From positions 1-64,000 of the forward strand of contig NZ_JSZO01000030.1 of the NCBI RefSeq assembly GCF_000801955.1: a stretch of 64,000 nt of DNA, written 5' to 3'. Below the pieces are notes generated by a model that was not told where the DNA came from, did no database searches, and saw only the letters and a program-made list of their open reading frames with translations. Shown one piece after another: positions 28,462 to 48,809 of the stretch (position 1 is its first letter; every line of letters begins with the position of its first letter). This DNA is from Ralstonia sp. A12. GTDB taxonomy: Bacteria > Pseudomonadota > Gammaproteobacteria > Burkholderiales > Burkholderiaceae. A program made the translations under genes and the position numbers.

Positions 28462-28524
28462 GCGGATGCGTGGTGTGCCAGAGGCATTTGGCTGGCGGAT
28501 GGGTGCCAATATGCGCGTTTCTAG

Positions 28525-28548
28525 CGAAATATAGGGTTGGTTATAACG
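28525..28548. promoter_or_regulatory. Putative ModE operator before modB
   Basis: The 24-bp site begins CGAAATATAG and ends TTATAACG on the plus strand, so its half sites are inverted CG(W)(W)ATA / TATAACG. It has the same length and outer halves as the E. coli modA operator as I remember it. It lies 64 bp upstream of the modB start, a suitable position for repression by ModE with molybdate. Confidence 0.5.
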
Positions 28549-30284: not shown

Positions 30285-31478
30285 ATGCCAACCAAGATCC
30301 TTTCCATTTTCGGCACGCGCCCTGAGGCCATCAAGATGGCACCGGTCGTCAAGCAGCTCGAGTCGACGGCCGGCGTGGAATCCATCGTCTGCGTGACCGG
30401 CCAACACCGCACCATGTTGTCGCAAGTGCTTGATCTGTTTGGCGTCCGGCCGCATCACGACCTCGCGCTGATGACGGGTAACCAGACGCTTAACGGGCTG
30501 GCGTCGCGGCTGATTGTCTCGATCGACGAAGTGCTCGCCAGTGAACAGCCGGACCGCGTGCTGGTACACGGCGATACCACTACGGCCTGCGCCGCTGCGC
30601 TGGCCGCCTTCCACCGGCAGATCCCGGTTGGACACGTGGAGGCCGGTTTGCGCACCGGAAACCTCGCGCAGCCGTGGCCTGAAGAGATGAACCGCCGGGT
30701 GATCGACGTGATGAGCGACCTGATGTTCGCGCCAACCGACAGCTCGCGGACCAATCTGCTGGCTGAGTCGTTGGCGGGCCGCATCATCGTGACGGGCAAC
30801 ACCGTGATCGACGCGCTCTATCTGAGCGCCGCGCGCATCGACGCGGACGCTGCGCTGCGTGTGCAGCTCGATCAGACGCTGGCGTTTCTTGATCCGCAGC
30901 AGCCGGTGGTGCTGGTGACGGGCCACCGCCGGGAGAACTTCGGTGCGGGCTTTGCCGAAATCATCGCCGCGCTAGGCGATCTTGCGCGCAGCAACGTCGC
31001 GCAGATCGTCTATCCCGTGCACCTCAACCCCAACGTTAGCGGGCCGGTCCGGCAGGCGCTCAGCGGCGAGCCCAACGTGCATCTGATCGAGCCGCTGGAC
31101 TACCTGACCTTCGTGCGCCTGATGCAGCGATCGGCCGTCATTCTTACTGACTCGGGCGGCATCCAGGAAGAGGCTCCGGCGCTGGGCAAACCGGTGCTGG
31201 TGATGCGCGACGTGACCGAACGCCCCGAAGCGATCGCGGCCGGCACGGTGCGCCTGGTCGGCACCCAGCGCGAAACGATTGTGCGGGAAACGCGCACGGT
31301 GCTGGAGTACCTGGCAATCGGCGAGACCTTCTCTGGCCGCTCCAACCCCTACGGCGATGGCCATGCATCGGCACGCATCGTGGCGGCACTGACGGGGCAG
31401 CCGTTCCATGAATTCAATCCTGACGGGCCCGGACGCATCTCTGTTGGTGCAACTGCCCGCGAGCCTTTGCTGCGATAA
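30285..31478 (+). CDS. wecB: UDP-N-acetylglucosamine 2-epimerase (non-hydrolysing)
   Basis: The 397-residue product belongs to the WecB/MnaA family, which interconverts UDP-GlcNAc and UDP-ManNAc in the cytoplasm. Visible motifs are the N-terminal FGTRPEAIKMAPV, catalytic-region VGHVEAGLRTGN with PWPEEMNRR, VTGHRRENFG with its His, and the C-terminal TDSGGIQEEAPALGKPVLVM. The ATG at 30285 follows a long open stretch and is the normal family start. As the first gene of the operon with nfrB and nfrA, it should supply UDP-ManNAc. E. coli NfrAB-dependent polysaccharide also needs WecB, which fits well. Confidence 0.92.
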   Translation: MPTKILSIFGTRPEAIKMAPVVKQLESTAGVESIVCVTGQHRTMLSQVLDLFGVRPHHDLALMTGNQTLNGLASRLIVSIDEVLASEQPDRVLVHGDTTTACAAALAAFHRQIPVGHVEAGLRTGNLAQPWPEEMNRRVIDVMSDLMFAPTDSSRTNLLAESLAGRIIVTGNTVIDALYLSAARIDADAALRVQLDQTLAFLDPQQPVVLVTGHRRENFGAGFAEIIAALGDLARSNVAQIVYPVHLNPNVSGPVRQALSGEPNVHLIEPLDYLTFVRLMQRSAVILTDSGGIQEEAPALGKPVLVMRDVTERPEAIAAGTVRLVGTQRETIVRETRTVLEYLAIGETFSGRSNPYGDGHASARIVAALTGQPFHEFNPDGPGRISVGATAREPLLR

Positions 31479-31508
31479 GGCGCCATCCATCATTGCGAGA
31501 CTATCGAC

Positions 31509-33707
31509 GTGAATTCTGAACGTTCTTTTCGCTGCATGACACGCGCTTGGGCGGCGACATTTGCGGTTGCCTTGCTGGTTGCGGGCGGTGCTCAGGCTGC
31601 GCCCGATGACCTTGGCGCGGCACTGGCCCAGCTTTCGCAAGGGCGCGTCGTGGCGCGCAGCCTGTCGCTGGCAGACGTGGGCGTGCGCGAGCCGCTGGTG
31701 CTGCAGGCGCCGGATGCCATCCGCGAGCTGTACCTGCCGGTGCCGGCCAACCTGCCGATCTCTGACGCAACGCTCCAGCTGGATGGTGACTACATGCGTG
31801 CAGATGGCGGCCGCACCACCATGCTGGTGTCGCTGGACGGCGCGCCGGTGCTGGCGCGCGGCTTTACCCAGTTTCAGGGCGACGCGGCGGCCAGCCTGGG
31901 TGTGGATGGCGGCCCGCGGCCTACCGGTTTTGTCCGTCTGGGGCTGCAGTGGTCGTCCATCATCAACGACACCATCTGTACCGACCAGACCGCCATCGGC
32001 AACGTGCTGCGTATCGCTCCCACGTCGCGGCTGACATATCGCTTTGACCCGGCTGCGGTGAAGGATCTGCGCACCGCGTGGAGTGCATTGCCGACGGCAC
32101 CGACGGTTGCGCTGAGCGCAAACAAGGTGGGCGCACCCGCCTATGACGTGAGCTGGCGGACGATCGCGCTGCTCCAGGCAGAGAACAAGCGCCCGGCCGT
32201 GCGTGCATGGCCCGTGGCGGGCGATACGGTTGACCTGACCGGGGTGAGCGTGCCCAAGGCGCTGCAGGCCGTGCCGGCATTTGCTGCGCTGGCTGCCGGT
32301 GGCCAGCACAAGCTGGCCAGCCCGGCAGAGGCTGGGGCGTTTGTGTTGCTCGCGTCGCGCTCGGCATTCGCACCGGACATCGTGGTGGTGGATGACGCAT
32401 TGCGCGAGGGCCTGAAGACATCGCTGGATGCACTGCGCGCGCAGGTTGCTGCGGTATCCGCGCCGGCTGTTGCAGCGTTTGACCAGTGGCGTGTGCAGAC
32501 CTGGGCGCCAATCACCGAGCCGCTGACGGCAGGCGAAGTGCGGCTCGCCCATCTGCCGGGGCAGGTTGTGATCGTGACGGGCGATGTTGGCGGGGTAGCG
32601 GCACTGGCCGCAGCGTGGCGTCCGATCGACACGTCCAACCGCATCGTGGTGCACCAGTTGGAAGGCGCGCCGCACGCATACGGTGACAAGGTCGCGCTGT
32701 CGCTGCTGGGCGGCGAGCCCCGGACGATGGAGGTGCTGGGGCGTGCGACGTGGGATGCCAGCTTTGACCTGAGCACCGTCTCGGGACAGGGCAAGCTGCC
32801 GGGCGAAGTGGTGCTCGACATTGCGGCCGCGCCGTCGGCCAGTGTGGGCGGCCAGGTCGCGTCGGTCTATTTCAACGGCATGCTGATCGGCTCGGAATTG
32901 CTCAAGCAGGACGGCCGCGTGCAGCGCATCACGGCGCGCATCCCGCGCTACGCGCTGGGCGCATCCAACCTGCTGCGTGTGCTGTTTCAGCGCCCGCCCG
33001 AAGACGGCTGCCGTGCCCGTCTGCAAGGCTATCCGGTGGCCGTGCTGCCGAGTAGCCACGTGACGCTGGAAACCGCCAGCCTGGACCCGGATTTCACCGG
33101 CATGGTTGCGCGTTTCGCCTCGCAGGCCAATGTGATGGTGCCGACCGCCTATCTGGGCGATGCAGCGGCAACGCTGCCGCGTGTCGCGCGCCTGGCCAAC
33201 GCCGCCGGCATCGCGCCCACGCGCAGCCAGCTCACCGCGGTGGCTGACAACGAGGCGGCGGCGCCCAAAGACACCTTCCTGGCAATCGATGTGCCCCTGC
33301 GTGACGAGACCGGCCGCGCTGCCCTGTCGAAGGATCGCCTGACGCTGACGACGACTTCCGACAAGTTGCTGGCCGATGTGTCGGGCCTGACCAACCTCGG
33401 CATCGTGCAAGTGGCAAAGGCGGGTAGTGCGACGGGCGTGGTCTATCGCACCGTCGGGCCGGTGGCGCCGGTGCTGCCTGCCACGCTGCGCCTGTCGCGC
33501 GGCGACGTGGCGGTGGTGGCCAGTGACGGCATCGCCCGCGTGTTCGACACGCTGCACCCCGGTGAAGTCCTGCCCAGCGATGAAGATCGTCCGCGCCTGG
33601 CCAAGAGCTTCTGGTCGTGGGCCGGGCCGGGCATCGTGGTGCTGGTGTTCCTGATCCTGCTGGCAGTGGCGGGCATCGCACGCCGGCGTCGCCAGTCGAA
33701 GTCGTGA
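31509..33707 (+). CDS. BcsB-like periplasmic polysaccharide synthase subunit
   Basis: The 732-residue product has a signal peptide (to about AQAA, residue 31), a long beta-rich periplasmic region and one C-terminal helix (WAGPGIVVLVFLILLAVAGI) followed by an RRRRQ cytoplasmic end. That is the BcsB layout: a membrane-anchored periplasmic partner that guides the growing glycan. Matching stretches include LPVPANLPISDATLQLDGDY and SVYFNGMLIGSELLKQDGRV. No BcsA-type synthase is nearby; the NfrB-type glycosyltransferase starts inside its last codons (GTG at 33704), so the two are coupled. It probably replaces BcsB for a ManNAc-type polymer. Confidence 0.82.
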   Translation: MNSERSFRCMTRAWAATFAVALLVAGGAQAAPDDLGAALAQLSQGRVVARSLSLADVGVREPLVLQAPDAIRELYLPVPANLPISDATLQLDGDYMRADGGRTTMLVSLDGAPVLARGFTQFQGDAAASLGVDGGPRPTGFVRLGLQWSSIINDTICTDQTAIGNVLRIAPTSRLTYRFDPAAVKDLRTAWSALPTAPTVALSANKVGAPAYDVSWRTIALLQAENKRPAVRAWPVAGDTVDLTGVSVPKALQAVPAFAALAAGGQHKLASPAEAGAFVLLASRSAFAPDIVVVDDALREGLKTSLDALRAQVAAVSAPAVAAFDQWRVQTWAPITEPLTAGEVRLAHLPGQVVIVTGDVGGVAALAAAWRPIDTSNRIVVHQLEGAPHAYGDKVALSLLGGEPRTMEVLGRATWDASFDLSTVSGQGKLPGEVVLDIAAAPSASVGGQVASVYFNGMLIGSELLKQDGRVQRITARIPRYALGASNLLRVLFQRPPEDGCRARLQGYPVAVLPSSHVTLETASLDPDFTGMVARFASQANVMVPTAYLGDAAATLPRVARLANAAGIAPTRSQLTAVADNEAAAPKDTFLAIDVPLRDETGRAALSKDRLTLTTTSDKLLADVSGLTNLGIVQVAKAGSATGVVYRTVGPVAPVLPATLRLSRGDVAVVASDGIARVFDTLHPGEVLPSDEDRPRLAKSFWSWAGPGIVVLVFLILLAVAGIARRRRQSKS

Positions 33708-35884
33708 CGTTCGACGCGATCCAATGGTATGCGGGCCACCTGCTGGCCCAGTACTACCACGGGCTGGAGTTGCTGGCCATCGTGGTGGCGGTGCTCATCC
33801 TGATTTCGAGCCTCGACGATTTGTTCATCGACGTATGGTTCTGGGTGCGCGAGGTCTACCGCTTCTTCACGGTCAAGCGCGTGTACACGCCGCTGACGGC
33901 CGAGCAGCTCAAGGCCCGTGCTGAGCAGCCAATCGCCATCATGGTGCCGGCATGGCTGGAGTACGACGTGATCGCGGCCATGATCGAGAACATGGTGCGT
34001 GTGATGGACTACCGCAGCTACATGGTATTCGTCGGCACGTACCAGAACGATGCGCAAACGATCAATGAAGTGGAGCGCATGCGCCGCCGCTACAAGCAGT
34101 TGCGCCGCGTGGAAGTGCCGCACGACGGCCCGACCTGCAAGGCCGACTGCCTGAACTGGGTCATCCAGGCGATCTTCAAGCACGAGCGCGACCACAACAT
34201 CGAGTTTGCCGGTGTGGTGCTGCACGACAGCGAGGACGTCCTCCATCCGCTGGAGCTGCGCTTCTACAACTACCTCCTGCCGCGCAAGGACATGATCCAG
34301 TTGCCCGTGGCATCGCTCGAGCGCAACTGGTTCGAGCTGGTGGCCGGCACCTATATGGATGAATTTGCCGAGTGGCATGGCAAGGACCTCGTGGTGCGCG
34401 AAAGCCTGGCCGGCACGGTGCCGTCCGCCGGCGTTGGGACCTGCTTCTCGCGGCGCGCGCTGCTCGCGCTGGCCGCCGAAACCGACAACCAGCCCTTCAA
34501 TACCGAAAGCCTGACCGAGGACTACGACGTGGGTGCGCGGCTGGGCAAGATGGGCATGCAGTCTATCTTTGCGCGCTTTCCGGTGCAGTTCAGCATGCGG
34601 CGCAAATCGTGGTTCGGGCTGGGGCCGGAGCGCGATTTCACGCTCACCATGCCGTTGTGCGTGCGCGAGTTCTTCCCAGATACCTTCCGCACGGCGTACC
34701 GGCAGCGGGCACGCTGGGCGCTGGGCATCGGGCTGCAAGGCTGGAAGCAGACCGGCTGGACGGGTGGCCCCGCCAACCGCTACCTGCTTGCGCGGGATCG
34801 CAAGGGCATTGTCACCGCGTTCGTTGGCATTCTGGCCTACGTGCTGATCGTGCAGTTTCTGCTGTTTGCGGTGGCCGATCAGTTTGGGTGGATGCCCGAG
34901 CTGATCGCCTCGCCGCTGTCCAAGTACGAATGGCTGGGCACGCTGCTGTGGTTCAACGCCATTGCGCTGACGCTGCGTGTGGTGCAGCGCGTGTACTTCG
35001 TTACGCAGCTCTACGGATGGGAGCACGGCGTGCTGTCGGTGCCGCGCATGATCGTCGGCAACTTCATCAACTTCATGGCGGTATCGCGGGCGTGGAAGAT
35101 GTTCCTCACCCACCTCATTACCGGCAAGCGGTTGGCATGGGACAAGACCATGCACGATTTTCCGTCGGAAGACGGCTTCAGCGGCGAGCGTCCGCGGTTG
35201 GGCGAACTGCTGGTGACGTGGCAGGCGATCGGGCAGGAGAACCTGGATCAGGCACTGCAAGACGCCCATGCCCGCCAGGCGCCCCTGGGCCGCGTACTGA
35301 TGGCCAAAGGCTGGCTGGACGACGAAACGCTGGCCGAGGCCATTGCCTTCCAGGCCGATCTTGAGCGTGGCGCACTTGATCTGGAGCGGTTGCGTGCGCA
35401 TGCGGACGTGCTGCCGCTCGAGACCGTGATCCGCCACCGTGTGCTGCCGCAGGGTGAGGATGCCTCGGGGCGTGTCGTGCTGCTGGTGGCCAGCCCGTTG
35501 CCCGATGTGGAGCTCGCACAGGTGGCCGCCCAATTGCAGCGCGATGTCGTGCAACAGATCGTGCGTGAAGGCGAGATCGCCATGGGCCTGCGCCAACTGC
35601 GCGGCATGAAGGTGGCGGAAGCCGGTGCAGCACCGGCGCCGCAGGCCGCGCATGTGGATGGCGCCGCCGCAGCGCGTGGTGTGCCGCTGCTGGGGGATCT
35701 GCTGATCGAGCGCGGCCATGTTCTGCGCGAAACATTTGACACCACACTGCGCGACTACAGTCCGCACCGCGACGGCCGCATCGGTGACTACATGGTCAGC
35801 CGCGGCGTGATCTCGCACGACGCATTGGAAGACGTGATCAAGGAGCAGCACCGCCTGGGCGGGGTGCTGGCAGCAGCGGCATGA
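33704..35884 (+). CDS. nfrB: NfrB-type glycosyltransferase with MshEN c-di-GMP modules
   Basis: This product (726 aa) should polymerise and move the glycan across the inner membrane. N-terminal helix at about 21-40; GT2 catalytic domain at about 72-345 with DSED (175-178), TED (271-273) and QRARW (334-338); further helices at about 370-470. The C-terminal 230 residues carry two MshEN-like modules, the first RPRLGELLVTWQ with APLGRVLMAKG, the second PLLGDLLIERG with RIGDYMVSRG. MshEN domains bind c-di-GMP. The layout is that of E. coli NfrB, the inner-membrane part of the phage N4 receptor system. GTG start overlaps the previous stop; its own stop overlaps nfrA. Confidence 0.88.
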   Translation: MTFDAIQWYAGHLLAQYYHGLELLAIVVAVLILISSLDDLFIDVWFWVREVYRFFTVKRVYTPLTAEQLKARAEQPIAIMVPAWLEYDVIAAMIENMVRVMDYRSYMVFVGTYQNDAQTINEVERMRRRYKQLRRVEVPHDGPTCKADCLNWVIQAIFKHERDHNIEFAGVVLHDSEDVLHPLELRFYNYLLPRKDMIQLPVASLERNWFELVAGTYMDEFAEWHGKDLVVRESLAGTVPSAGVGTCFSRRALLALAAETDNQPFNTESLTEDYDVGARLGKMGMQSIFARFPVQFSMRRKSWFGLGPERDFTLTMPLCVREFFPDTFRTAYRQRARWALGIGLQGWKQTGWTGGPANRYLLARDRKGIVTAFVGILAYVLIVQFLLFAVADQFGWMPELIASPLSKYEWLGTLLWFNAIALTLRVVQRVYFVTQLYGWEHGVLSVPRMIVGNFINFMAVSRAWKMFLTHLITGKRLAWDKTMHDFPSEDGFSGERPRLGELLVTWQAIGQENLDQALQDAHARQAPLGRVLMAKGWLDDETLAEAIAFQADLERGALDLERLRAHADVLPLETVIRHRVLPQGEDASGRVVLLVASPLPDVELAQVAAQLQRDVVQQIVREGEIAMGLRQLRGMKVAEAGAAPAPQAAHVDGAAAARGVPLLGDLLIERGHVLRETFDTTLRDYSPHRDGRIGDYMVSRGVISHDALEDVIKEQHRLGGVLAAAA

Positions 35885-38412
35885 GGCAACTGAATGTGAA
35901 ACCCGCGCGCGCATTCCAGCAACGCATTCCGGCGCGCATGGCGATGGCTGCGTTGGCGGGCGCGCTGTGCGCACCAACGCTGCTGCACGCGCAATCGCAT
36001 GGCGCCCAGCCATTGCCGCTGGCCGGTGCCGCCTATCGTGTTGCCCAGCAGGCCTACGATGCCTGCAAGCGCCGTGCGTATAGCAGTTGCGTGGCACTGG
36101 CGCGTGAGGCGATTCGGCAGCGTCCTGACGTCATGTCACTCCACCTGTTGCTGGCCGATGCGCTGGCAGCGCAACGCCAATATGGGGAGGCCGGGCGTGT
36201 GCTCAACGGCGCCGTTGCGCGTTTCGGCCCTGACCGGCAGCTCGTCGAGCAGCGCAAGCGCGTTGCCGCCTTGCGGGCACCTGCCAACGCTGCAGGGCAC
36301 GCGCAGGCCAAGGATGAGGAGGGCGGTGCACTGCTGACCGGCGCGGCGCTGGAAGCGGCCAAGAGCGCTTACCAAGCCTACAACGCCAAGGACTTTGCAG
36401 GCGCCGTGCGGTACGCCAACGAGGTGATTGTGCTGCGTCCGGACCTGAAGCGTTTTCGTTTGTTGCTGATCGATGCCTCCAGCGCCGCTGGCGATGACGC
36501 CGCTGCGTGGGACGCCGACATGGCCGCCGTCCGCCAGTTTGGCGACAGCGAACCACTGCGCATCCGCCGCGAATTCATTGGCGTCGGCCTGGGCATGAAG
36601 GTGGCCGAGGCGGCGCTCAATGCGCGCCAGTCGGGCCGGGCAGACGATGTGGCGCGTGCCATCGAGCTGGCGCGTCAGGCGGTCGTCTATGCACCGGCAC
36701 GTTTTGACTACCGCCTGCAGCTCATCGACGGGCTGCTTGCCACGAGCGATCTCGCTGGCATGGAGCGCGCGATGGACGACGCTATCGCCTACGACGATAC
36801 GGAAATCATGGCCTGGACGCTGCGCGGCTACGCACGCGCGGCACAGGGCAAGTCGGCGGCAGCCAACGCTGACCTGGCGCAAGCGGCCAAGCAGACCGAT
36901 GCCACCGCGGCGGTGCGGCGTTCGATGCAGACCATCGCCGCCGATATCTGGCTGGCCCAGGGCGAGCCGCAGCGCGTGATCGACATGCTCGGCAATCTCA
37001 AGCCGATCGACGACGACACGGATTCGCTCATCACCATGCGCGTACACAGTGCGCGCCTGCAGTTGGCAACTGCGTCGGCAGCAACGGCCACACCGGCCCC
37101 GTCTGCCGAGGCGATCACGCAGCGCGTGGCGGTGGCGGCTCGCCCAGTGATCGACTGTGCCAGCAGTGAGTTCGGATCGGACTGCGATCTGTATCCGGCA
37201 GACGCCGGCTTCGCGCCGGCACAGGCGGCAGCCCGCGCCACCGAGGCAAAAGACACCAAGCTGGCGCTTGAGTATGCCCGTCAGGCTGTGCAGGCCGCGC
37301 CGCAGGACGCACAGCACCGCGTTGATCTGGTCAACGCGCTGATTGACGCCAAGCAGGAGCGGGCAGCAACACGCGAATCGAAGGCGATTGTTGACGACGG
37401 GCTGCTCGATGCGCTGCCACCGCTTTCCGCTGCGTATATCGCGCAGCGTGCAGGCGATGATCAGACCGCTTCCGACCTGTTCGAGCGCGCTGACAAGATC
37501 ACGCCGCTGTCGATCGACGAGCGTACCGATGCCGCTTACTCGGCCATGGCAGCGCGTCGCAACCAGCTTGCCATTCAGCATCTGGAAAGCGCCATCGATG
37601 CGGGTCTGGCGCCGCCGGAGGGCGATGACCCACCGCCCACGCCGCAGGCCATGCTCGACATGCGCGAGGCCCATGCAGACGCCACGCGCAACTGGGGCTT
37701 CGACGCGACGCTCAGCTACCGTGGCGGCGGCATGCCATCAGGCCCGCTGCTGGCCACCACGCCGGGCGATGCCAACGCGTGGCAGTTGGGTGTGGAAGGG
37801 TACTGGCGCCCATTTGGCCCGCTGGGTGACCGGATGTTCGAGGTCTATGCGCGCGCCTTCGAGAGCTTTGGCGTCAAGGGCGGTGAAGCCAGCGGCGCCC
37901 AGACACTGCAGGCTGCGGTGGGCGTGCGGGTTAAACCGTTTGCCGATGTGAATGCGATCTTCGCCATCGAACGCGTCATCCCGATCGGTTCCGCCGCCAA
38001 CGGCGATTGGCTTGCGCGCGCCGCGTATTCCGACGGCTTCGGCACTGAGCGCCGCATCGACGTTCCGTCGTGGTGGACGGGGCGCTTCTATGCAGAAGCC
38101 GGGCGCTACCTGCAGGCCGGCACCAACTACGCCACCACCAACGCCGAGTTAGGCCGCACCTATCGCATTGACCGCGTCAGCTCGCGCTGGACGGTGTTCC
38201 CGTACGTCGTCATCGGCGCGGACTACGACAGCAGCGTCAACGGCAGCGTGCCGATCGGCGCGGGGGTGGGGGTGTCGACGCGTTACGTCTTCCGCGAGAG
38301 CAAGTACGACGCACCGCAGTCGTATGTCGACCTGTCCTTGCAATACCGCTTCAAGCTGGCCGGCGATGACCGGGCCCGCGGAGTGTTCTTCAACGCCATC
38401 TATTCCTATTGA
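35881..38412 (+). CDS. nfrA: NfrA-type outer-membrane TPR/beta-barrel protein
   Basis: The 843-residue product has a signal peptide (end near LLHAQS, residue 39). A long alpha-helical region with TPR-like repeats follows (residues about 45-580, e.g. YDACKRRAYSSCVALAREAI). The C-terminal about 260 residues have the amphipathic-strand pattern of an outer-membrane barrel and end in aromatic FFNAIYSY. This matches the bacteriophage N4 adsorption protein A layout, where the barrel exports the glycan and the TPR part spans the periplasm. It overlaps nfrB by 4 bp. In E. coli NfrA is the N4 phage receptor, so this protein could also be a phage receptor here. Confidence 0.83.
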   Translation: MRQLNVKPARAFQQRIPARMAMAALAGALCAPTLLHAQSHGAQPLPLAGAAYRVAQQAYDACKRRAYSSCVALAREAIRQRPDVMSLHLLLADALAAQRQYGEAGRVLNGAVARFGPDRQLVEQRKRVAALRAPANAAGHAQAKDEEGGALLTGAALEAAKSAYQAYNAKDFAGAVRYANEVIVLRPDLKRFRLLLIDASSAAGDDAAAWDADMAAVRQFGDSEPLRIRREFIGVGLGMKVAEAALNARQSGRADDVARAIELARQAVVYAPARFDYRLQLIDGLLATSDLAGMERAMDDAIAYDDTEIMAWTLRGYARAAQGKSAAANADLAQAAKQTDATAAVRRSMQTIAADIWLAQGEPQRVIDMLGNLKPIDDDTDSLITMRVHSARLQLATASAATATPAPSAEAITQRVAVAARPVIDCASSEFGSDCDLYPADAGFAPAQAAARATEAKDTKLALEYARQAVQAAPQDAQHRVDLVNALIDAKQERAATRESKAIVDDGLLDALPPLSAAYIAQRAGDDQTASDLFERADKITPLSIDERTDAAYSAMAARRNQLAIQHLESAIDAGLAPPEGDDPPPTPQAMLDMREAHADATRNWGFDATLSYRGGGMPSGPLLATTPGDANAWQLGVEGYWRPFGPLGDRMFEVYARAFESFGVKGGEASGAQTLQAAVGVRVKPFADVNAIFAIERVIPIGSAANGDWLARAAYSDGFGTERRIDVPSWWTGRFYAEAGRYLQAGTNYATTNAELGRTYRIDRVSSRWTVFPYVVIGADYDSSVNGSVPIGAGVGVSTRYVFRESKYDAPQSYVDLSLQYRFKLAGDDRARGVFFNAIYSY

Positions 38413-38416
38413 TCCT

Positions 38417-39157
38417 ATGCCACGTTGCATGACATTGACTGACCTGATGCGCGCGCTGGGCGCCGTGCTCGTGCTGGGCGTGCCCGCCGCCGCGCACGCT
38501 GCCGCGCAGGATGTTGCCGGCCTGTACGGTCCGCAGCCGCCTGCCAATGCCACGTATGTGCGCGTGGTCAACCTGGCCGCGCAACCTGCCCGCGTGACGC
38601 TGCCCGGCAGCGAGGCTGCACAAACGGTGGCGGCCGGCGCATCGACGCGACTGAGCGTCGTGACGCCGGGCACACCGCTGCGCGTGACGGTTGACGGACG
38701 GGAGCCCGCACAGGCCGCTGCTGCCGCTGCCGCCGATGCAGCAGGCGCGGCATCGGCCAGCGATGCCACGGCCGGCCAGGCCATCACCGTGGTGCTTACG
38801 CGTGAAGCCCAGGGCTGGCGCGCCACGCGCGTGGCCAATCCGCAGGAGCGCTTGGATGCCATGCGCGCCACGCTGCGCGTCTACAACTTTGCAGGCGCCT
38901 GCGCAGGAAAGATCGCCGTGGCCGATGGTGGCCCGACCGTGTTTGCGCAGGTGCCTGCAGGCACGCAGCAGGCGCGCGCCATCAACCCGATTTCTGCGCG
39001 CCTGACGGGCAGCTGCGGCACCGCTACCACAGCGCCGCTGCAACTGCCGGCGCTGGCCGCTGGTGACAGCTACAGCCTGTTCCTGGCCGGCGATGCCGCC
39101 AAGCCCGTGCTCACCGGCGTGCGCGACGACCTTGCCTGGCCGCCCGCCAAGAAGTGA
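38417..39157 (+). CDS. AlgF-like periplasmic O-acetylation protein
   Basis: The product (246 aa) has a signal peptide ending near AAHAAAQ. Two domains with an AlgF-like pattern follow: LYGPQPPANATYVRVVNLAA and the second-half ATLRVYNFAGAC, each a beta-sandwich-style segment, separated by an Ala-rich stretch at about residues 100-120. AlgF helps pass acetyl groups during alginate O-acetylation. Position directly before AlgJ/AlgX/AlgI-like genes supports the call. The ATG lies 4 bp after the nfrA stop and no ribosome site is obvious; a second ATG at 38429 is possible. Confidence 0.77.
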   Translation: MPRCMTLTDLMRALGAVLVLGVPAAAHAAAQDVAGLYGPQPPANATYVRVVNLAAQPARVTLPGSEAAQTVAAGASTRLSVVTPGTPLRVTVDGREPAQAAAAAAADAAGAASASDATAGQAITVVLTREAQGWRATRVANPQERLDAMRATLRVYNFAGACAGKIAVADGGPTVFAQVPAGTQQARAINPISARLTGSCGTATTAPLQLPALAAGDSYSLFLAGDAAKPVLTGVRDDLAWPPAKK

Positions 39158-39186
39158 ACCTCACCACCGAATCTGAAGGCCTCATC

Positions 39187-40239
39187 ATGACCGCATTGCT
39201 TCGTTCGCCGTTCGGCCCCAACAGTCAGTCCGTCGATGCCCGTCGCCGCCGCGTGCTGTTCTCGCTGGGGGCTGCGCCCTTGGCCGGTGCACTGGCCGGG
39301 TTGCCCACTCTCAGCCTTGCTGTGCTGGGCACGCAAGCGCCTGCCACCAAGGTGCAGACCATCATCGAAGGGCGCGACCGCTGGCTGTTCCCCGGTTGGG
39401 AAAGCCTGACCGATGACGACACCGGTGCCTGCCTGCAGGTGCTCGACCTCATCCGCAAGGCGGCCGACAAGCTCAGCGCGAGCGACATCCGCACGGTGAT
39501 CGTCATCGCACCGCTCAAGGCGCGCGCCTACGCCGACAAGCTGCCCGACGGCACGACGCTGTCGTCCGCAGTGAAAGGCCGCTACGCAGCACTGGCAACA
39601 CATGCCGGCAAGATCGGGCTCGACCTGGTGGATGCGGAAGCCGCCATTGCCACCGTCAACCCGACCGACGACACAACGTTCATCCGCGCCGACTACCACT
39701 GGTCGGGCCGCGCCGCCGAGGCCAACGCCGCTGCCACTGCCAAGCTGCTGCAGGCACGTGGCTTGTTCACCGAGCGCACCGGTGGCGGCACGCGGCTCGG
39801 CAAATGGACCGAAGAAATCAGCTACGGCGATCTGGCCGACCTGCTGCCGCCCGAAAAGAAAAAGGCTGTCGGCAAGGACCATTTCTTCGTGCGTCAGGCC
39901 GGCAACAGCAAGGACCTGCTCGATAGCGCGCCCCCGGTTGTGCAGGTGGTCGGCAACAGCATGGTGCAGCCGTACCTTGGTTTTCCGCAGAAGCTCTCGA
40001 ATGCGATCGACACCCCCGTTGGCCTGACCTGGACCTTCGGCAACGTTGGCCCGTGGAAGACGCTGCTGAACTATCTGGAGTCGCCTGCGTTCAAGTCCGG
40101 CAAGATCAAGGCGCTGGTTTGGCAGTTCAATGAGGGCCAGATGATGAACGGCCCGAATGCAGCCACGCAGTGGGATGCCGCCTCGATCATGGCGGAAGAC
40201 GCATGGCTTGCTCGCCTGGACAAGGCGCTGGCGCGATGA
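39187..40239 (+). CDS. AlgJ-like O-acetyltransferase (SGNH-type)
   Basis: The 350-residue product begins with an Arg-rich n-region (RRRRVLFSLGAA) and a hydrophobic helix, so it is exported or anchored in the inner membrane. The AlgX/AlgJ-family catalytic set is visible: DYHWSG (Asp169, His171) and VGNSMVQ (Ser257). These enzymes carry O-acetyl from AlgI to the polymer. The ATG at 39187 has GAAGG 8 nt upstream; a GTG at 39154 overlapping the previous stop is less likely. Its stop overlaps the next gene's start (ATGA). One of two such proteins in the operon. Confidence 0.8.
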   Translation: MTALLRSPFGPNSQSVDARRRRVLFSLGAAPLAGALAGLPTLSLAVLGTQAPATKVQTIIEGRDRWLFPGWESLTDDDTGACLQVLDLIRKAADKLSASDIRTVIVIAPLKARAYADKLPDGTTLSSAVKGRYAALATHAGKIGLDLVDAEAAIATVNPTDDTTFIRADYHWSGRAAEANAAATAKLLQARGLFTERTGGGTRLGKWTEEISYGDLADLLPPEKKKAVGKDHFFVRQAGNSKDLLDSAPPVVQVVGNSMVQPYLGFPQKLSNAIDTPVGLTWTFGNVGPWKTLLNYLESPAFKSGKIKALVWQFNEGQMMNGPNAATQWDAASIMAEDAWLARLDKALAR

Positions 40240-41411
40240 GCGACGGGCTCGCACGCTCGCCTGCAACCGCGCTGCCAGGGGAAGCGCCGGCAGAGGCTGC
40301 GCCACCGGACCGGTCCGCGTTCTGGCATCGGGCTGTGGCGTGGCTGGTGGCGTTGCTTCTGGCTGTCGGTTTGGGCATGGCCGTGGTAGCACTCGCGCGA
40401 CAGGCCGATAGCGGCGAGCCGTTCAATTGGAGCGGATGGCGTGATGGTACGTTGGGCCATCAGGTTGAAGGTGCCATCGATGTGCCGTATGCCCGCATGC
40501 TGCACCGCTGGCAGGCAGCGGTGCGCTATCGCGTGCTGGGCGATCTCGGGCCACAGGTGCGCGAGGGTTGCCCGGGCTGGCTCTTTTACGCCGATGGATT
40601 GCGCCCGCCCCCGGCTGCGGCCGGGCGGGTGCGGCAGGTGGGTGTGCCCGGTGCCGATGCGTTGCTCGATGCGCGCATCGCGACACTGCACCGCTATGCC
40701 GACGCGCTGCGCAAAGACGGCATTCGCCTGGTGGTCGTGACGGTGCCTGACAAGGCACGCGTTGAGGCGCAGGCCTTATGCGGCCTGCACCAGGACGCCC
40801 GCATGACGCAGCGCCTGACTGGATGGCAACAAGCGCTGGACGCTGCCGGTGTCGCACGCATTGAATTGCTGCCCGCGTTGCAACAGGCAAGCCCCGCGTA
40901 CTTCCGCACCGATGTGCACTGGAATGCAAGCGGCGCGCAGGCTGCTGCCAACGTGATCGGCGCAGCTGTGCTGCCGTTGCTGGGGGGGCGAGGCGAGGCA
41001 GGCTTCGAGCACCAACAGGGGCCGGTGGAGCCACGCGTCGGCGATCTGCTTACGCTGAGCGGTCTGGGCGACGTGCCCGACGCATGGCGCCCGGCGCCCG
41101 ATCAGGTGACGCCGCAAACTATCGGCGTGGTGCATTCGGGTGGCCTGCTGGATGACGCACCGCCGGTGGAAGTCATGCTGGCAGGCAGCTCGTTCTCGCG
41201 GCGCAGTGAGTTTGCCGGGCGTCTGGGCGAACAGCTTGGCCGCGAGGTCTGGAACGTGAGCCTGGACGATGGCCAGTTCGACCGGGCCATGCAGGCCATG
41301 TGGGACAAACGCGCCACCTGGCCCAAGAGCGTGCGCGTGCTGGTGTGGGAAATGTCGGAAGACGCGCTGCACCTGCCGGTGAAGAACACTGCTATCGGCG
41401 CAAGCCATTGA
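40236..41411 (+). CDS. Second AlgJ/AlgX-like SGNH acyltransferase
   Basis: The 391-residue product has an N-terminal membrane helix (about 34-54) and a periplasmic SGNH domain. DVHWNASG gives Asp226 and His228, and AGSSFSRR gives the likely nucleophile Ser319. It differs clearly from the AlgJ-like protein upstream, so it is not a recent duplicate. With two SGNH enzymes the operon may place two kinds of acyl group (acetate and perhaps D-alanine), or one may pass acyl groups to the other as in AlgJ/AlgX. Overlaps the previous gene by 4 bp and ends 7 bp before algI. Confidence 0.78.
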   Translation: MSDGLARSPATALPGEAPAEAAPPDRSAFWHRAVAWLVALLLAVGLGMAVVALARQADSGEPFNWSGWRDGTLGHQVEGAIDVPYARMLHRWQAAVRYRVLGDLGPQVREGCPGWLFYADGLRPPPAAAGRVRQVGVPGADALLDARIATLHRYADALRKDGIRLVVVTVPDKARVEAQALCGLHQDARMTQRLTGWQQALDAAGVARIELLPALQQASPAYFRTDVHWNASGAQAAANVIGAAVLPLLGGRGEAGFEHQQGPVEPRVGDLLTLSGLGDVPDAWRPAPDQVTPQTIGVVHSGGLLDDAPPVEVMLAGSSFSRRSEFAGRLGEQLGREVWNVSLDDGQFDRAMQAMWDKRATWPKSVRVLVWEMSEDALHLPVKNTAIGASH

Positions 41412-41418
41412 GGCCGAG

Positions 41419-43032
41419 ATGCTATTCAACTCGTTCATTTTCCTGACGCTGTTCCTGCCGGTTTCGATTGCCGGCTATTACCTGCTGGGTGCGCGCTCGC
41501 CGCGTGCGGCGTCGGTCTGGCTGTGCGTTGCGTCGTTCCTGTTCTACGGGTGGTGGAACCCGTCGTTCGTGCTGTTGCTCACGTTGTCGATCGCGTTCAA
41601 CTTTGCGATGAGCTGGCTGATCCTCAGCAACCCGGCGGGGTCGCGTGCGCACCGCGCGTGGCTGGCCTTCGCCATCGTTGTCGATCTGGCGGTGCTGGTG
41701 CGCTACAAATACCTGGCCGCACTGCTTGGCCTGGTGGTGAACGCGGCCGACATCATGCCGGCCGGCTGGGTTGCCGTGGCGATGGAGGACGTGGCGCTGC
41801 CGCTGGGCGTGTCGTTCTTCACTTTCACGCAGATCGGCTATCTGCTCGACTGCAACGCGGGCATCGTCAAGGAGCGTGATCCGCTGGGCTTCATCCAGTT
41901 CGTCACGTTCTTCCCGCACCTGATTGCGGGCCCCATCCTGCACCACAAGGAAATGATGACGCAGTTCGCGCGCCCCGAGACGTACCGGCTGCGCGCGGAG
42001 AACCTGTCCATCGGCCTGACCATGTTCACCTGCGGGCTGGCCAAGAAACTGCTGCTGGCCGACGCGATTGCGCCGTACGCCGATCATGGCTTTGCTGCAC
42101 CGCACGAGCTGCAGATGCTGGCAGCCTGGGGCACCTGTCTGGCGTATGCCATGCAGCTCTACTTCGACTTCTCGGGGTACTCCGACATGGCGATGGGGCT
42201 GGCGAAGATGTTCGGGGTGCGCTTCCCGCTCAACTTCAATTCGCCATTCAAGGCCGGCAGCATCATCGAGTTCTGGCAGCGCTGGCATATGACGCTCACG
42301 CGCTACCTGACCAGCTACCTCTACTACCCGATGGCGATGCGCATCAACCGCGCACGCATGAGCAGCGGCAAGTCGACGGGGCGGCTGGCGCAGCGCTCGG
42401 TGGACGGCTTTGCGGCAACCGTGGCCGTCCCGACCTTCTACACCATGGGTCTGGCCGGTGTCTGGCATGGGGCAGGGCTGCAGTACCTCATCTACGGCCT
42501 GCTGCATGCGGCCTTCCTGAGCGTCAACCACGGTTGGCGTGCGTGGCAGGCAGCACGCGCGCCAGCCGGTGCGCCGGCACAGCCTGCACCGCCCACGCCG
42601 CTGCGCCATGCAGGCAATGTGCTGCTGACGTTCGTTGCTGCGCTGGTCGCGTTCGTCTTCTTTCGCGCGCACGGTGTGCATGACGCGCTGCAGATGCTGG
42701 GCGGCATGGTTGGCCTGCGCGGCATCGAGCCACTGGGTTGGCCCGCCTGGGGCGAAGCCGGCATGACCGGCCTGGAGTGGCTGCGCATCGTGCTGGGCCG
42801 CTCAATGCTGGCGCTGCAGATCGTGGTGATGCTGGCCATCGTCTGGTGCCTGCCCAACGTGCATCAATGGATGGGCCAATTTTCACCGGCGCTGGAGCGT
42901 CCTGCCAACGCTGCGGCTTCACGTTTTGCGTGGCGGCCTTCGCTGCGCTGGAGCGTTGTCATCGTCGGCCTGCTGCTGTTTTGCATGGCGCAGTTGCACG
43001 GCGAAGTGCGCTTTCTCTATTTCCAATTCTGA
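41419..43032 (+). CDS. algI: AlgI-like MBOAT acyltransferase
   Basis: The 537-residue product is a polytopic membrane-bound O-acyltransferase. The N-terminal MLFNSFIFLTLFLPV is typical of AlgI; the MBOAT core follows, with FPHLIAGPILHHKEMM, QLYFDFSGYSDMAMGLA, His290 in WQRWHMTL and the catalytic His350 in LAGVWHGAG. AlgI moves acyl groups from the cytoplasm to periplasmic acceptors; DltB belongs to the same superfamily and does so with D-alanyl-DltC. The DltC- and DltA-like genes directly downstream make a DltB-like role for this protein possible. Confidence 0.9.
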   Translation: MLFNSFIFLTLFLPVSIAGYYLLGARSPRAASVWLCVASFLFYGWWNPSFVLLLTLSIAFNFAMSWLILSNPAGSRAHRAWLAFAIVVDLAVLVRYKYLAALLGLVVNAADIMPAGWVAVAMEDVALPLGVSFFTFTQIGYLLDCNAGIVKERDPLGFIQFVTFFPHLIAGPILHHKEMMTQFARPETYRLRAENLSIGLTMFTCGLAKKLLLADAIAPYADHGFAAPHELQMLAAWGTCLAYAMQLYFDFSGYSDMAMGLAKMFGVRFPLNFNSPFKAGSIIEFWQRWHMTLTRYLTSYLYYPMAMRINRARMSSGKSTGRLAQRSVDGFAATVAVPTFYTMGLAGVWHGAGLQYLIYGLLHAAFLSVNHGWRAWQAARAPAGAPAQPAPPTPLRHAGNVLLTFVAALVAFVFFRAHGVHDALQMLGGMVGLRGIEPLGWPAWGEAGMTGLEWLRIVLGRSMLALQIVVMLAIVWCLPNVHQWMGQFSPALERPANAAASRFAWRPSLRWSVVIVGLLLFCMAQLHGEVRFLYFQF

Positions 43033-43050
43033 CCGCGCTTAATCGCAACC

Positions 43051-43293
43051 ATGACCATGACTCAAACCGAAACCCTGCAGGCCGATGTGAAAGCGCTCGT
43101 CGAGAGCGTTGTCATGCGCACGGTCGAACCCGGCACGCCGCTCATCGAATCGGGCCTGGTCGATTCCGTCCTGGCGGTCGAGATCGTGATGGCGGTCGAA
43201 GTGCAGTTTGGCGCGCGCGTGCCACCCACGGAAATTGCCGAGCATCTGGCCTCGGTCAATGCACTGGCAGCGTATATCCAATCCACCAGATAG
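43051..43293 (+). CDS. Acyl carrier protein, DltC-like
   Basis: The 80-residue acidic protein has the carrier-protein helix pattern and a phosphopantetheine site in ESGLVDSVLAVEI with Ser39. The size and position before a DltA-like ligase fit DltC, the D-alanyl carrier protein. It could instead carry another acyl group loaded by the ligase. It sits between the MBOAT gene (18 bp upstream) and the ligase (9 bp downstream, GGAGAGG ribosome site), so expression is tightly linked. Confidence 0.83.
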   Translation: MTMTQTETLQADVKALVESVVMRTVEPGTPLIESGLVDSVLAVEIVMAVEVQFGARVPPTEIAEHLASVNALAAYIQSTR

Positions 43294-43302
43294 GAGAGGG
43301 CC

Positions 43303-44781
43303 ATGCGGTTCGATCTTCATACGGGTACCTTTGTCGATACCGGGCTGCGGCCCGACCACGATGCGGTGATCGGCGCCGATCGCACGCTCACCTGGCAAGC
43401 GCTGGCGGTAGAAGCGGCTGCCTGGTGTGAGCAGGCACGCGCCGCGGGCTTTGCTGCTGACGTGCCGGTCATCATCCGCGGGCACAAGGAGGCGGCGTTC
43501 TTCGTGGCCATTGCCGGTGCGCTGATGCTGGGCGCGCCCTTCGTGCCGCTCGACACGATCTACCCCGACGAGCGCATGGACCGCATTGCGCGCACATTGA
43601 GCGCGCACGCCTACTACGACGCGCGCACCGCAACCTTCGAGCCCCTGCCGCATGGCAGCAGTCCGCAACCGTTGCAAGAAAAAGGGCTGGCCTACGTGCT
43701 GTTCACCTCGGGCACCACGGGCGAGCCCAAAGGCGTACAGATTGGCCGCGAGAGCGTGCACACCCTGGTCGACTGGATGGCGCACGACTTTGGGTTGGGC
43801 ACGGCGCCGGTGTTCCTGAATCAGGCGCCGTTCAGCTTCGACTTGTCGATGTACGAGGTAATGGCCACGCTCGCGCTGGGCGGCGGCGTGGTGCTGGCCT
43901 CCCGCGAGGCCATTACCCAGGGCGATGCTTTCCTGAAGATGCTGGCCGCGCACGGCGTGACGACGTGGGTTTCGACCCCGTCATTTGCCCAGCAGCAATT
44001 GCTGCAACCGGATTTCTCGGGAAAGGGGTTGCCCACGCTCGACACCTTCCTGTTCTGCGGCGAGGTGCTCCCCGTGACGCTGGCACGTCACTTGCGACAG
44101 CGTTTTCCGAACGCGCGCATCATCAACACCTACGGCCCCACCGAGGCCACGGTTGCCACCACGTGGATCGTGGTGGACGATGCCATGCTTGCCGGTACAG
44201 ACAAGCTGCCCATCGGCTACCCCAAGCGCGGCAGCGAAGTCTTCGTGCAAGACGGTGAACTGTGCATTGCCGGCCCGCATGTGATGCGGGGCTATCTGAA
44301 CCGCGAAGACCTCAATGCCACGCGCATGTTCTCGCACAACGGCACGCGCGGATTTCGCACCGGCGACCTGGGCGCGGTGGACGAGCATGGCCGCCTGTTC
44401 TGCCATGGCCGGATGGACGACCAGGTCAAGGTGGGCGGCTACCGTATCGAGCTGTTGGAGATCGACGCCGCGCTGGGCAAGCTGCCCGGCGTGCAGAGTG
44501 CCGCAGCGGTGCCATTGCGGCGGCCCGATGGGTCGGTGGCGCGCATTGTCGGTTTTGTGCAGCCCGCGTCAGGCGATGCGCAGTCGCCGTTCTTGCCGCA
44601 AGACTGGAAGGCATCGCTGGGTGAGGCGCTGCCGCCGTATATGATCCCGTCGGAGTTGATTCCGCGGCAAACGTTGCCGGTGTCGGTCAACTTCAAGATC
44701 GATCGCGCCAAGCTGGCGCAGGATTACCGTGACATGCAACTCAACCCGATCCGCCAAACCGAGGGCAAGCACAATGCCTGA
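43303..44781 (+). CDS. DltA-like D-alanine--carrier protein ligase
   Basis: The 492-residue AMP-forming ligase has P-loop TSGTTGEPKG (135-144), NQAPFSFDLSMYEV, VSTPSFAQQ, TFLFCGEVLP, NTYGPTEATVA and the C-terminal NFKIDR with catalytic Lys465. Asp180 (SFDLS) and Cys252 (FLFCGE) match the positions that in Bacillus DltA bind the amino group and set D-alanine stereoselectivity. By overall pattern it is much nearer DltA than acetyl-CoA or aryl-CoA ligases. It should load D-alanine on the small carrier protein before it. The Dlt system is known mainly for teichoic acids in Gram-positives; in this operon the acceptor would be the exopolysaccharide. No DltX or DltD gene is visible; the SGNH proteins may stand in for DltD. 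Confidence 0.85.
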   Translation: MRFDLHTGTFVDTGLRPDHDAVIGADRTLTWQALAVEAAAWCEQARAAGFAADVPVIIRGHKEAAFFVAIAGALMLGAPFVPLDTIYPDERMDRIARTLSAHAYYDARTATFEPLPHGSSPQPLQEKGLAYVLFTSGTTGEPKGVQIGRESVHTLVDWMAHDFGLGTAPVFLNQAPFSFDLSMYEVMATLALGGGVVLASREAITQGDAFLKMLAAHGVTTWVSTPSFAQQQLLQPDFSGKGLPTLDTFLFCGEVLPVTLARHLRQRFPNARIINTYGPTEATVATTWIVVDDAMLAGTDKLPIGYPKRGSEVFVQDGELCIAGPHVMRGYLNREDLNATRMFSHNGTRGFRTGDLGAVDEHGRLFCHGRMDDQVKVGGYRIELLEIDAALGKLPGVQSAAAVPLRRPDGSVARIVGFVQPASGDAQSPFLPQDWKASLGEALPPYMIPSELIPRQTLPVSVNFKIDRAKLAQDYRDMQLNPIRQTEGKHNA

Positions 44782-45706
44782 ACGCCGTCCTTCCTGGCGA
44801 TGTGCCGCGCTGGTCGTGGCCCTGGCGCTGTCCGGTACGTTGACGGGCGGGGCGGTTGCGCAGGAGTTTGCCGGTGAGCCGCTGGCAGAGGGCGTCGTCT
44901 GGCAACCAGATGCCCTGCACAAGAATCCGAAGGGGACGTGGGACAGGCTCGGTGTCAGCAACCTGCTGGTGCAATGGACAGCCGTGGACGACGCGACCTT
45001 CGTGTCGGGCGCCCGGCCGTCGGCGGTGGCGCATGCCCCGGACTGGTCGCGCATTGCTGCCGAGCCCTGGGCGCGCAACGTCATCGTCGGGTTGGCCGGT
45101 GCATTTGATGAAACCTGGGCGCGCGCCCACGTTGAAGAGCTTGCCGAGCGCTCACGGCACCTGGTGTCGGTGCGCCCCCCCGTCAACGTTGAGGGCTGGT
45201 ACTTCCCGGTCGAAGTCGATCCCACGTGGAAGGACATGGCACGGCTCAAGCGCGCGCTGGACCGGTTGCCGCGGCCGCTGTGGATCAGCGTGTACGACCA
45301 CAGTGAACTTGGCGCCAAGGGCTTCGCCGATTGGGTTGCACGCTGGCTGCCCGCCGACGTGGGCGTGTTCTGGCAGGACGGTTGCGGCGCATTCAAGCGC
45401 GATCCGGCTACAGCGCGGGCCTATGCTGATGCGCTGGCCGGGCGCTTTGGCACCGAGCGCGTACGCGTGATTGCGGAGGCGTTTCGTCCCAAGCGCCGCG
45501 GCGGATTCCGCCCCGCCACTGCTTTTGAGCTGGCGCCGCAACTGGCGCGCTACCAGGGCTTCAAGGTTTATCTGTTCGACGGGCCGCACTACGTGTCGCC
45601 AACGCTCGTGGATGGACTGCTCAAGCACCCGCTGCGGAATACGCCGGGATTGGCGCTGGAGGCGCCGCAGCCTCCCGCAAAGATCGGGAGCGGGCAGGAT
45701 TCGTAG
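44774..45706 (+). CDS. Secreted TIM-barrel-like protein at the operon end (possible glycosidase)
   Basis: The 310-residue product starts within the last codons of the ligase gene (8-bp overlap). A signal peptide (LVVALALSGTLTGGAVAQ) is followed by a domain that reads as a (beta/alpha)8 barrel: NLLVQWTAVDD, NVIVGLAGAFDE, RPPVNVEGWYFPVEVDPTWKD, RPLWISVYDHS, DVGVFWQDGCGAF, RVRVIAEAFRP and GFKVYLFDGPHYVSPT. The general pattern resembles DUF4434-type glycoside-hydrolase-like proteins. A role in trimming or degrading the exopolysaccharide in the periplasm is the natural guess, but no glycosidase family can be named with certainty. Confidence 0.62.
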   Translation: MPERRPSWRCAALVVALALSGTLTGGAVAQEFAGEPLAEGVVWQPDALHKNPKGTWDRLGVSNLLVQWTAVDDATFVSGARPSAVAHAPDWSRIAAEPWARNVIVGLAGAFDETWARAHVEELAERSRHLVSVRPPVNVEGWYFPVEVDPTWKDMARLKRALDRLPRPLWISVYDHSELGAKGFADWVARWLPADVGVFWQDGCGAFKRDPATARAYADALAGRFGTERVRVIAEAFRPKRRGGFRPATAFELAPQLARYQGFKVYLFDGPHYVSPTLVDGLLKHPLRNTPGLALEAPQPPAKIGSGQDS

Positions 45707-48369: not shown

Positions 48370-48373
48370 CACC

Positions 48374-48796: not shown

Positions 48797-48809
48797 GCGC
48801 AGCGCTGTC

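What the first reader, a model, noticed from the sequence alone, without database searches (positions are those of the whole stretch)
30285..45706. Composite exopolysaccharide operon: WecB + BcsB-like + NfrB/NfrA + AlgF/J/X/I-like + DltC/DltA-like
Eleven genes with overlaps or short gaps join four modules usually found apart: UDP-ManNAc supply, a synthase/export core of the phage-N4 receptor type (NfrAB), an alginate-type O-acylation machine and a D-alanine activation pair. E. coli NfrAB with WecB is known to make a c-di-GMP-dependent polysaccharide; this operon adds BcsB and decoration genes. It predicts a ManNAc-type polymer that is O-acetylated and perhaps D-alanylated, which would change its charge, adhesion and phage binding. 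I know of no named system with this combination.
Basis: partly seen in the sequence, partly recalled or inferred. Interest (0 to 1): 0.88.

Follow-up and report, generated by a model that had tools for sequence, protein, structure and literature searches.

The report
Exopolysaccharide operon with amino-acid decoration machine
A Ralstonia bacterium carries one eleven-gene cluster that looks built to make a surface sugar polymer and, unusually, to attach an amino acid (probably D-alanine) to it with parts from two different decoration systems, which could change the polymer's charge and what sticks to it.

Summary
In detail: eleven co-directional genes (30285-45706, Ralstonia) encode WecB, a BcsB-fold protein, NfrB, NfrA, an AlgF-like protein, two AlgJ/X-like SGNH proteins, an MBOAT, a carrier protein, a DltA-like ligase and a YbcH homologue. 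The core is the E. coli Nfr/NGR system plus BcsB; wecB linkage and an alginate-type cassette in an nfr cluster are already published (PMC8669469). The new part is the decoration block, which comes in two kinds. Class B has an AlgI-type MBOAT without carrier or ligase. The window's kind (class A) has carrier plus ligase in 32 of 35 distinct loci; these MBOATs form one clade, keep the fused FxYxxF acyl-shuttle, but lack the PLGGN motif and carry a segment 20 residues longer (56 versus 36) where DltB docks DltC. The ligase keeps the four D-Ala-pocket residues. I therefore read one machine, not two: D-Ala is loaded on the carrier, passed by the MBOAT to the SGNH proteins and onto the polymer; O-acetylation is not needed. 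A second lineage has an altered ligase pocket, so the amino acid may vary. Polymer and D-Ala are inferred, not shown. Two loci lack carrier and ligase. New variant of known kinds.

The parts
30285..31478 (+). wecB (nfrC): UDP-GlcNAc 2-epimerase, UDP-ManNAc supply
   Evidence: TIGR00236 447 bits, cut-off 210
31536..33707 (+). BcsB-fold periplasmic protein with one C-terminal membrane helix
   Evidence: PF03170 34.9 bits N-terminus; AlphaFold model pLDDT 82, Foldseek 9fmt, 6yg8, 7l2z BcsB E to 1e-24
33704..35884 (+). nfrB: GT2 synthase with HDSED (174), TEDYD (271), QRARW (334) and C-terminal MshEN c-di-GMP domain
   Evidence: NF012033 1098 bits; NF053729 75.6 bits; motifs
35881..38412 (+). nfrA: TPR + NfrA_C outer-membrane exporter
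   Evidence: PF13283 190 bits, TPR_19 25.6 bits
38429..39157 (+). AlgF-like protein
   Evidence: PF11182 49.8 bits
39187..40239 (+). AlgX/J-like SGNH protein 1 (DYHWSG from 169, VVGNSM from 254)
   Evidence: PF16822 178.5 bits; motifs
40236..41411 (+). AlgJ-like SGNH protein 2 (DVHWNA from 226, AGSSFS from 316)
   Evidence: PF16822 218.5 bits; best PDB AlgJ 4o8v 63.7 bits; motifs
41419..43032 (+). MBOAT acyltransferase, class A: enlarged carrier-docking segment (about 294-349), His350, C-terminal FLYFQF shuttle Tyr534
   Evidence: PF03062 87 bits; DltB TIGR04091 177 bits below cut-off 375; only PDB hits DltB
43051..43293 (+). DltC-like carrier protein, predicted phosphopantetheine Ser39
   Evidence: PF00550 40 bits
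43303..44781 (+). DltA-like adenylation enzyme; D180, C252, V284 and the Gly of YGPT match the DltA D-Ala pocket, Lys465
   Evidence: TIGR01734 389 bits; PDB 3e7w 317 bits
44774..45706 (+). YbcH (DUF4434) homologue, predicted barrel of alternating strands and helices
   Evidence: model pLDDT 88.8; weak Foldseek hits (TM under 0.5) to a putative fucosidase, PgaB GH domain, GH18-like

Best explanation
The operon makes, exports and aminoacylates an exopolysaccharide. WecB supplies UDP-ManNAc; NfrB (c-di-GMP-gated through MshEN) polymerises; the BcsB-fold protein and NfrA carry the chain through periplasm and outer membrane; the YbcH-family barrel may trim it. The DltA-like ligase adenylates D-alanine and loads it on the carrier (Ser39). 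The carrier docks on an enlarged cytoplasmic segment of the MBOAT, which moves D-Ala to Tyr534 of its own C-terminal FLYFQF shuttle; the two SGNH proteins, helped by AlgF, pass it to sugar hydroxyls. Thus it is an alginate-type (AlgI-J-X-F) transfer machine re-wired to a Dlt-type donor. Shown here: gene content, conservation, pocket residues, shuttle motif, class-specific segment, BcsB fold (model). Inferred: substrate, donor use, acceptor, and function (positive charge on the polymer).
For: Carrier+ligase are with class A MBOATs in 32 of 35 distinct loci, with 0 of 7 class B MBOATs (one short flank), and the carrier with 0 of 50 named long-flank loci without MBOAT. Class A is one clade, SH-aLRT 100, quick trees. 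Segment from RWH to WHG: 56 residues in 34 of 34 class A measured (L240 could not be parsed), 36 in 7 of 7 class B and 16 of 16 parsed of 17 'other' MBOATs, 44 in 3 of 3 DltBs of separate dlt operons; PLGG[NS] motif 0 of 34, 7 of 7, 13 of 16, 0 of 3. In DltB this is helix HC (Met302, Val305, Ile306, Met309) that binds DltC (PMC11035591 section 10). Pocket Asp, Cys, Gly, Val as in L. plantarum DltA (PMC9338922 passages). FxYxxF as in PMC12148441 (passages): 32 of 32 plus 2 of 2 class A, and L240's printed end.
Against: Two loci (L238, L239) have the class A MBOAT, AlgF and SGNH genes without carrier or ligase in about 5.5 kb downstream; elsewhere those genomes have only weaker adenylation domains (best 175 and 146 bits, 33-35% identity; nearly all in very long NRPS-size frames, one in a 507-aa frame). 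A third (L240) has the carrier but no ligase on a 7.2-kb contig. The shuttle motif does not tell donors apart: class B and 'other' have it too. The class A segment arose once, so the correlation is one evolutionary event; it is 12 residues longer than in DltB and common descent with helix HC is not shown. The closest MBOAT relatives (45-49% identity) have no carrier nearby. Ligase and carrier score below the curated Dlt cut-offs. No chemistry exists; ManNAc is postulated even in E. coli.
Confidence: 0.7

Rival explanations
1. Two independent decorations: the MBOAT/SGNH set O-acetylates the polymer from acetyl-CoA, as in alginate, and the carrier-ligase pair aminoacylates the same or another target through some other transferase.
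For: AlgF, AlgJ/X homologues and FLYFQF are those of acetylation systems; two loci keep the set without carrier-ligase; sister MBOATs without carrier are abundant.
Against: No second MBOAT was found in the cluster; the only MBOAT has lost PLGGN and has the enlarged segment in 34 of 34, unlike 23 of 23 measured carrier-free relatives for the segment and 20 of 23 for the motif; carrier and ligase lie directly after the MBOAT.
Confidence: 0.15
2. Carrier-fed acylation, but with another acyl group or amino acid than D-Ala (glycine, L-Ala, serine, beta-alanine).
For: A sister lineage (11 loci) has FGAE and TEATC in place of FCGE and TEATV, so specificity can change; the ligase scores below the DltA cut-off.
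Against: In the window the four pocket residues described for L. plantarum DltA are kept, including the Cys for D- over L-Ala.
Confidence: 0.12
3. Ordinary nfr operon with inherited or decaying decoration genes of no present function.
For: Most sampled nfr-bcsB loci have no MBOAT (50 of 70 named loci with long flanks); two loci without carrier-ligase.
Against: Reading frames, catalytic motifs and gene content are conserved over MBOAT identities of 57-96% in several genera.
Confidence: 0.03

Closest known systems
E. coli NfrBA-YbcH / NGR (N4 glycan receptor) with WecB (PMC8669469: passages and section 11; PMC8669472: passages)
   Same: WecB, NfrB with MshEN, NfrA, YbcH homologue
   Different: The E. 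coli nfrBA-ybcH stretch has no BcsB-like or decoration gene beside it
nfr cluster with alginate-type acetyltransferase genes, Simplicispira suum (PMC8669469 section 11)
   Same: Alginate-type cassette inside an nfr cluster
   Different: The text names no carrier, ligase or BcsB (BcsB 0 occurrences; DltA 0); I could not inspect that genome, so it may be class A or class B
Dlt pathway (DltA-DltC-DltB-DltX-DltD) and Bordetella dra locus
   Same: D-Ala ligase, carrier, MBOAT, SGNH acceptor
   Different: Class A fuses the shuttle motif to the MBOAT, has two AlgX-family SGNH proteins plus AlgF, and sits in a polysaccharide synthase operon; separate dlt-type operons in two relatives (called dra-like by me, from recall) have a 375-aa DltB without the motif. 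The dra paper is known to me from a reference list only
Alginate O-acetylation AlgI-AlgJ-AlgX-AlgF
   Same: MBOAT with C-terminal FxYxxF, AlgJ/X SGNH proteins, AlgF
   Different: No carrier or ligase in alginate clusters (recalled; PMC12148441 says so for MBOAT-SGNH systems other than Dlt); class B MBOATs, my stand-in for AlgI, differ in docking segment and PLGGN
Bacterial cellulose Bcs (BcsB) with Wss acetylation
   Same: BcsB fold; a synthase with MBOAT-SGNH acetylation genes (Wss named in PMC12148441 passages)
   Different: NfrB/NfrA core, WecB supply, carrier-ligase pair

Membership tests
Nfr/NGR synthase system | NfrB GT2 with DxD, TED, QxxRW motifs | tested here: met
   HDSED, TED and Q-ARW columns invariant in 8 aligned NfrBs
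Nfr/NGR synthase system | MshEN c-di-GMP domain | tested here: met
   NF053729 75.6 bits, cut-off 38; binding not tested
Nfr/NGR synthase system | NfrA exporter adjacent, WecB available | tested here: met
   PF13283 190 bits; TIGR00236 447 bits
Nfr/NGR synthase system | ManNAc-containing product, phage N4-type receptor | not testable with these tools
   postulated even in E. coli (PMC8669472 passages)
Dlt D-alanylation pathway | DltA with D-Ala pocket | tested here: met
   Asp180, Cys252, Gly, Val284; but TIGR01734 389 bits is under its cut-off 560
Dlt D-alanylation pathway | DltC with phosphopantetheine Ser and docking residues | tested here: inconclusive
   Ser39 present; Val at +4 and an acid at +5 in 32 of 32 parsed of 33; score under the DltC cut-offs
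Dlt D-alanylation pathway | DltB plus separate DltX micropeptide and DltD | tested here: not met
   MBOAT 537 aa with fused FLYFQF, DltB model 177 bits of 375; SGNH proteins match the AlgX family; DltX not searched for
Alginate-type MBOAT-SGNH acetyltransferase | MBOAT with C-terminal FxYxxF, SGNH partners with Ser and DxH, AlgF | tested here: met
Alginate-type MBOAT-SGNH acetyltransferase | no carrier protein, acyl-CoA donor | tested here: not met
   carrier and ligase directly downstream; donor itself not tested

The most novel reading that the evidence does not exclude
A family of carrier-fed exopolysaccharide aminoacylation systems with exchangeable amino acids: an NRPS-type A-domain and carrier feed an AlgI-like MBOAT whose docking site was rebuilt, so that D-Ala (pocket type I: Ralstonia, Paraburkholderia, Trinickia, G207) or another amino acid (pocket type II, 11 loci) is esterified onto an Nfr polymer. 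That would be a third way, besides Dlt and acetyl-CoA MBOATs, of feeding transmembrane acylation.
Probability: 0.4. Interest if true: 0.85.

Novelty: new variant of a known kind. Interest (0 to 1): 0.7.

Why it matters
[quoted passage not shown] This cluster breaks that split, and it offers a natural comparison of carrier-linked and carrier-free MBOATs in otherwise similar nfr operons, with a named 20-residue difference to test. If right, it predicts cationic amino-acid esters on a Gram-negative exopolysaccharide that is a relative of a phage receptor, so adhesion, antimicrobial-peptide binding and phage adsorption could depend on it. My full-text searches (open-licence PMC only; I saw listings, not the papers) showed no title or abstract start about D-alanylated exopolysaccharide, no paper with four literal phrases for it, and no listed paper with both NfrB and DltA (25 listed of 27).

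Tried and rejected
Search for an alginate-type exporter PF13372 in the genome: none. Rfam on the 1.7 kb upstream: only a sub-threshold match, no riboswitch. Promoter and terminator scans at both ends gave numbers within the spread of shuffles, so operon ends are not shown. Class A MBOAT in a class-wide sample: 1 of 369, the window itself; in plasmids: none at E 1e-100; so I see no sign of broad spread outside Burkholderiales. Idea that all AlgI-like MBOATs near nfr are carrier-linked: rejected by class B. Idea that the decoration is chance neighbourhood: rejected. Profile search of the BcsB-like and YbcH-like proteins against PDB sequences: no hits, hence the structure models. A first pattern search missed some SGNH motifs in type II loci; on an alignment Asp-x-His and the Ser are in all 11 type II loci and in L038.

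L137's AMP-binding hit is on the other strand at the locus edge and was not counted as a ligase of the cluster. Some of the 20 regions are cut short by contig ends (L176, L177, L185, L192).
Full report
1. The operon. Eleven + strand genes run from 30285 to 45706 with 4-8 base overlaps or 7-57 base gaps for the starts I chose. Their families are given under parts. The genus is Ralstonia: the best named relative of NfrB is Ralstonia sp. ASV6, 95%, and the window is contig C24 of a 6.1-Mb genome. Within the genus the ligase gene is in 3 of 16 genomes at E 1e-80, so it is accessory there.

2. Core. NfrB carries the three GT2 motifs and the c-di-GMP MshEN motif. NfrA, WecB and the YbcH homologue complete the E. 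coli NGR set. The second gene is a real BcsB relative: an alignment of 23 sequences gave a model (pLDDT 82) whose first 22 structural matches are from cellulose-synthase BcsB entries. A BcsB-like gene was found in 80 of 80 named loci kept by a scan with BcsB-linked NfrBs (80 kept of 527 relatives, so the sample is biased toward this type), WecB in 71 of 80 and NfrA in 79 of 80. The own genome has a second NfrB (47% identity) next to WecB and NfrA but no BcsB hit.

3. Two decoration classes. Of the 70 named loci with at least 9.3 kb after NfrB, 14 have a class A MBOAT and all 14 have carrier and ligase; 6 have a class B MBOAT and none has either; 50 have no MBOAT, none has the carrier and 1 has an AMP-binding gene on the other strand at the locus edge. 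One more class B locus has a short flank. NfrB is beside them in 32 of 35, the other three being on contigs that end first. Frequency: 25 of 200 genomes of the family, 6 of 25 genera; 4 of 349 of the order at E below 1e-150; 1 of 369 of the class, the window itself.

4. The MBOAT. Class A is one clade with a long stem (SH-aLRT 100), sister to MBOATs in other contexts; in 20 fetched regions around such MBOATs, some cut by contig ends, profiles of carrier and ligase found nothing at E 1e-4. These are quick trees; the program warns of long branches. All 34 measured class A, 7 class B and 17 'other' proteins end in FxYxxF, the 3 DltBs of separate operons do not. Between RWH and WHG, class A has 56 residues in 34 of 34, the carrier-free groups 36 in 23 of 23 parsed, the DltBs 43-44. 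The position is helix HC of DltB, which holds DltC (Met302, Val305, Ile306, Met309; PMC11035591 section 10; my count puts that Met at 302). Positions at least 90% fixed in class A and at most 10% in 'other' number 39, of which 16 lie in 294-364. The class A carriers keep Val at +4 and an acid at +5 after the Ser (32 of 32 parsed of 33), the places of DltC Val39 and Glu40 in that interface.

5. The ligase. The best PDB relative is 3e7w, a D-alanine--poly(phosphoribitol) ligase, 317 bits. In L. plantarum DltA the D-Ala amino group is held by Asp198, Gly296 and Val302, and Cys270 takes part in D over L choice (PMC9338922 passages). The window and the 20 other type I loci keep them; 11 type II loci have Gly-Ala for Cys-Gly and Cys for Val, while keeping Asp. 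Ligase types form two clades in a quick tree, and the composite ligases as a whole are apart from the five separate dlt-type ligases with support 87 only.

6. The SGNH proteins. Asp-x-His and the active Ser align in both SGNH proteins of the type I, type II and class B loci listed (the rarest variants were not printed), so loss of catalysis is not the difference between classes.

7. Mechanism. The best reading is an alginate-type transfer chain fed by a Dlt-type donor: D-Ala-AMP, D-Ala-carrier, D-Ala-Tyr534 in the MBOAT, SGNH Ser, polymer. Steps after gene content are inferred from DltB/DltX and PatA (PMC12148441 passages). The two loci without carrier and ligase retain the 56-residue segment, which fits secondary loss but also a carrier supplied from elsewhere or a donor that never was a carrier; I cannot choose.

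8. Novelty. The Nfr core, wecB linkage and an alginate-type cassette in nfr are in print. Carrier plus ligase with an AlgI-like MBOAT is what my searches did not bring up (listings of open-licence full texts only).

Noticed in passing
window 22175-24973 (+): PAS/GAF/GGDEF/EAL protein 5.3 kb before the operon, a candidate local c-di-GMP enzyme for NfrB.
   Followed up: no
window 46087-53252 (+): VgrG-like (phage GPD/gp5 domains) protein, DcrB-domain protein and a 1480-aa PAAR-RHS protein directly downstream, which looks like a type VI secretion effector cluster.
   Followed up: no
L039 (own genome C8:88000-107900): Second nfr locus in the same genome, NfrB 47% identical, with WecB and NfrA but no BcsB or decoration hit.
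   Followed up: partly
L037, L060, L228-L236: Altered ligase pocket (FGAE, TEATC), AlgF moved to the end, no YbcH homologue seen; NfrB frame only 565-573 aa in 10 of these 11 (L236 is longer).
   Followed up: partly
L058, L059: Separate dlt-like operons in Burkholderiales with ligases about 60% identical to the window's.
   Followed up: partly
L130, L131, L134, L137, L143: Pseudomonas nfr-bcsB loci with AlgF and one AlgX-like protein but no MBOAT found within the locus: a decoration cassette apparently without its membrane transferase.
   Followed up: no
window 28792-30284: 1.5 kb gap of lower G+C (58% in 28001-30000) before wecB without a clear gene or RNA family.
   Followed up: partly
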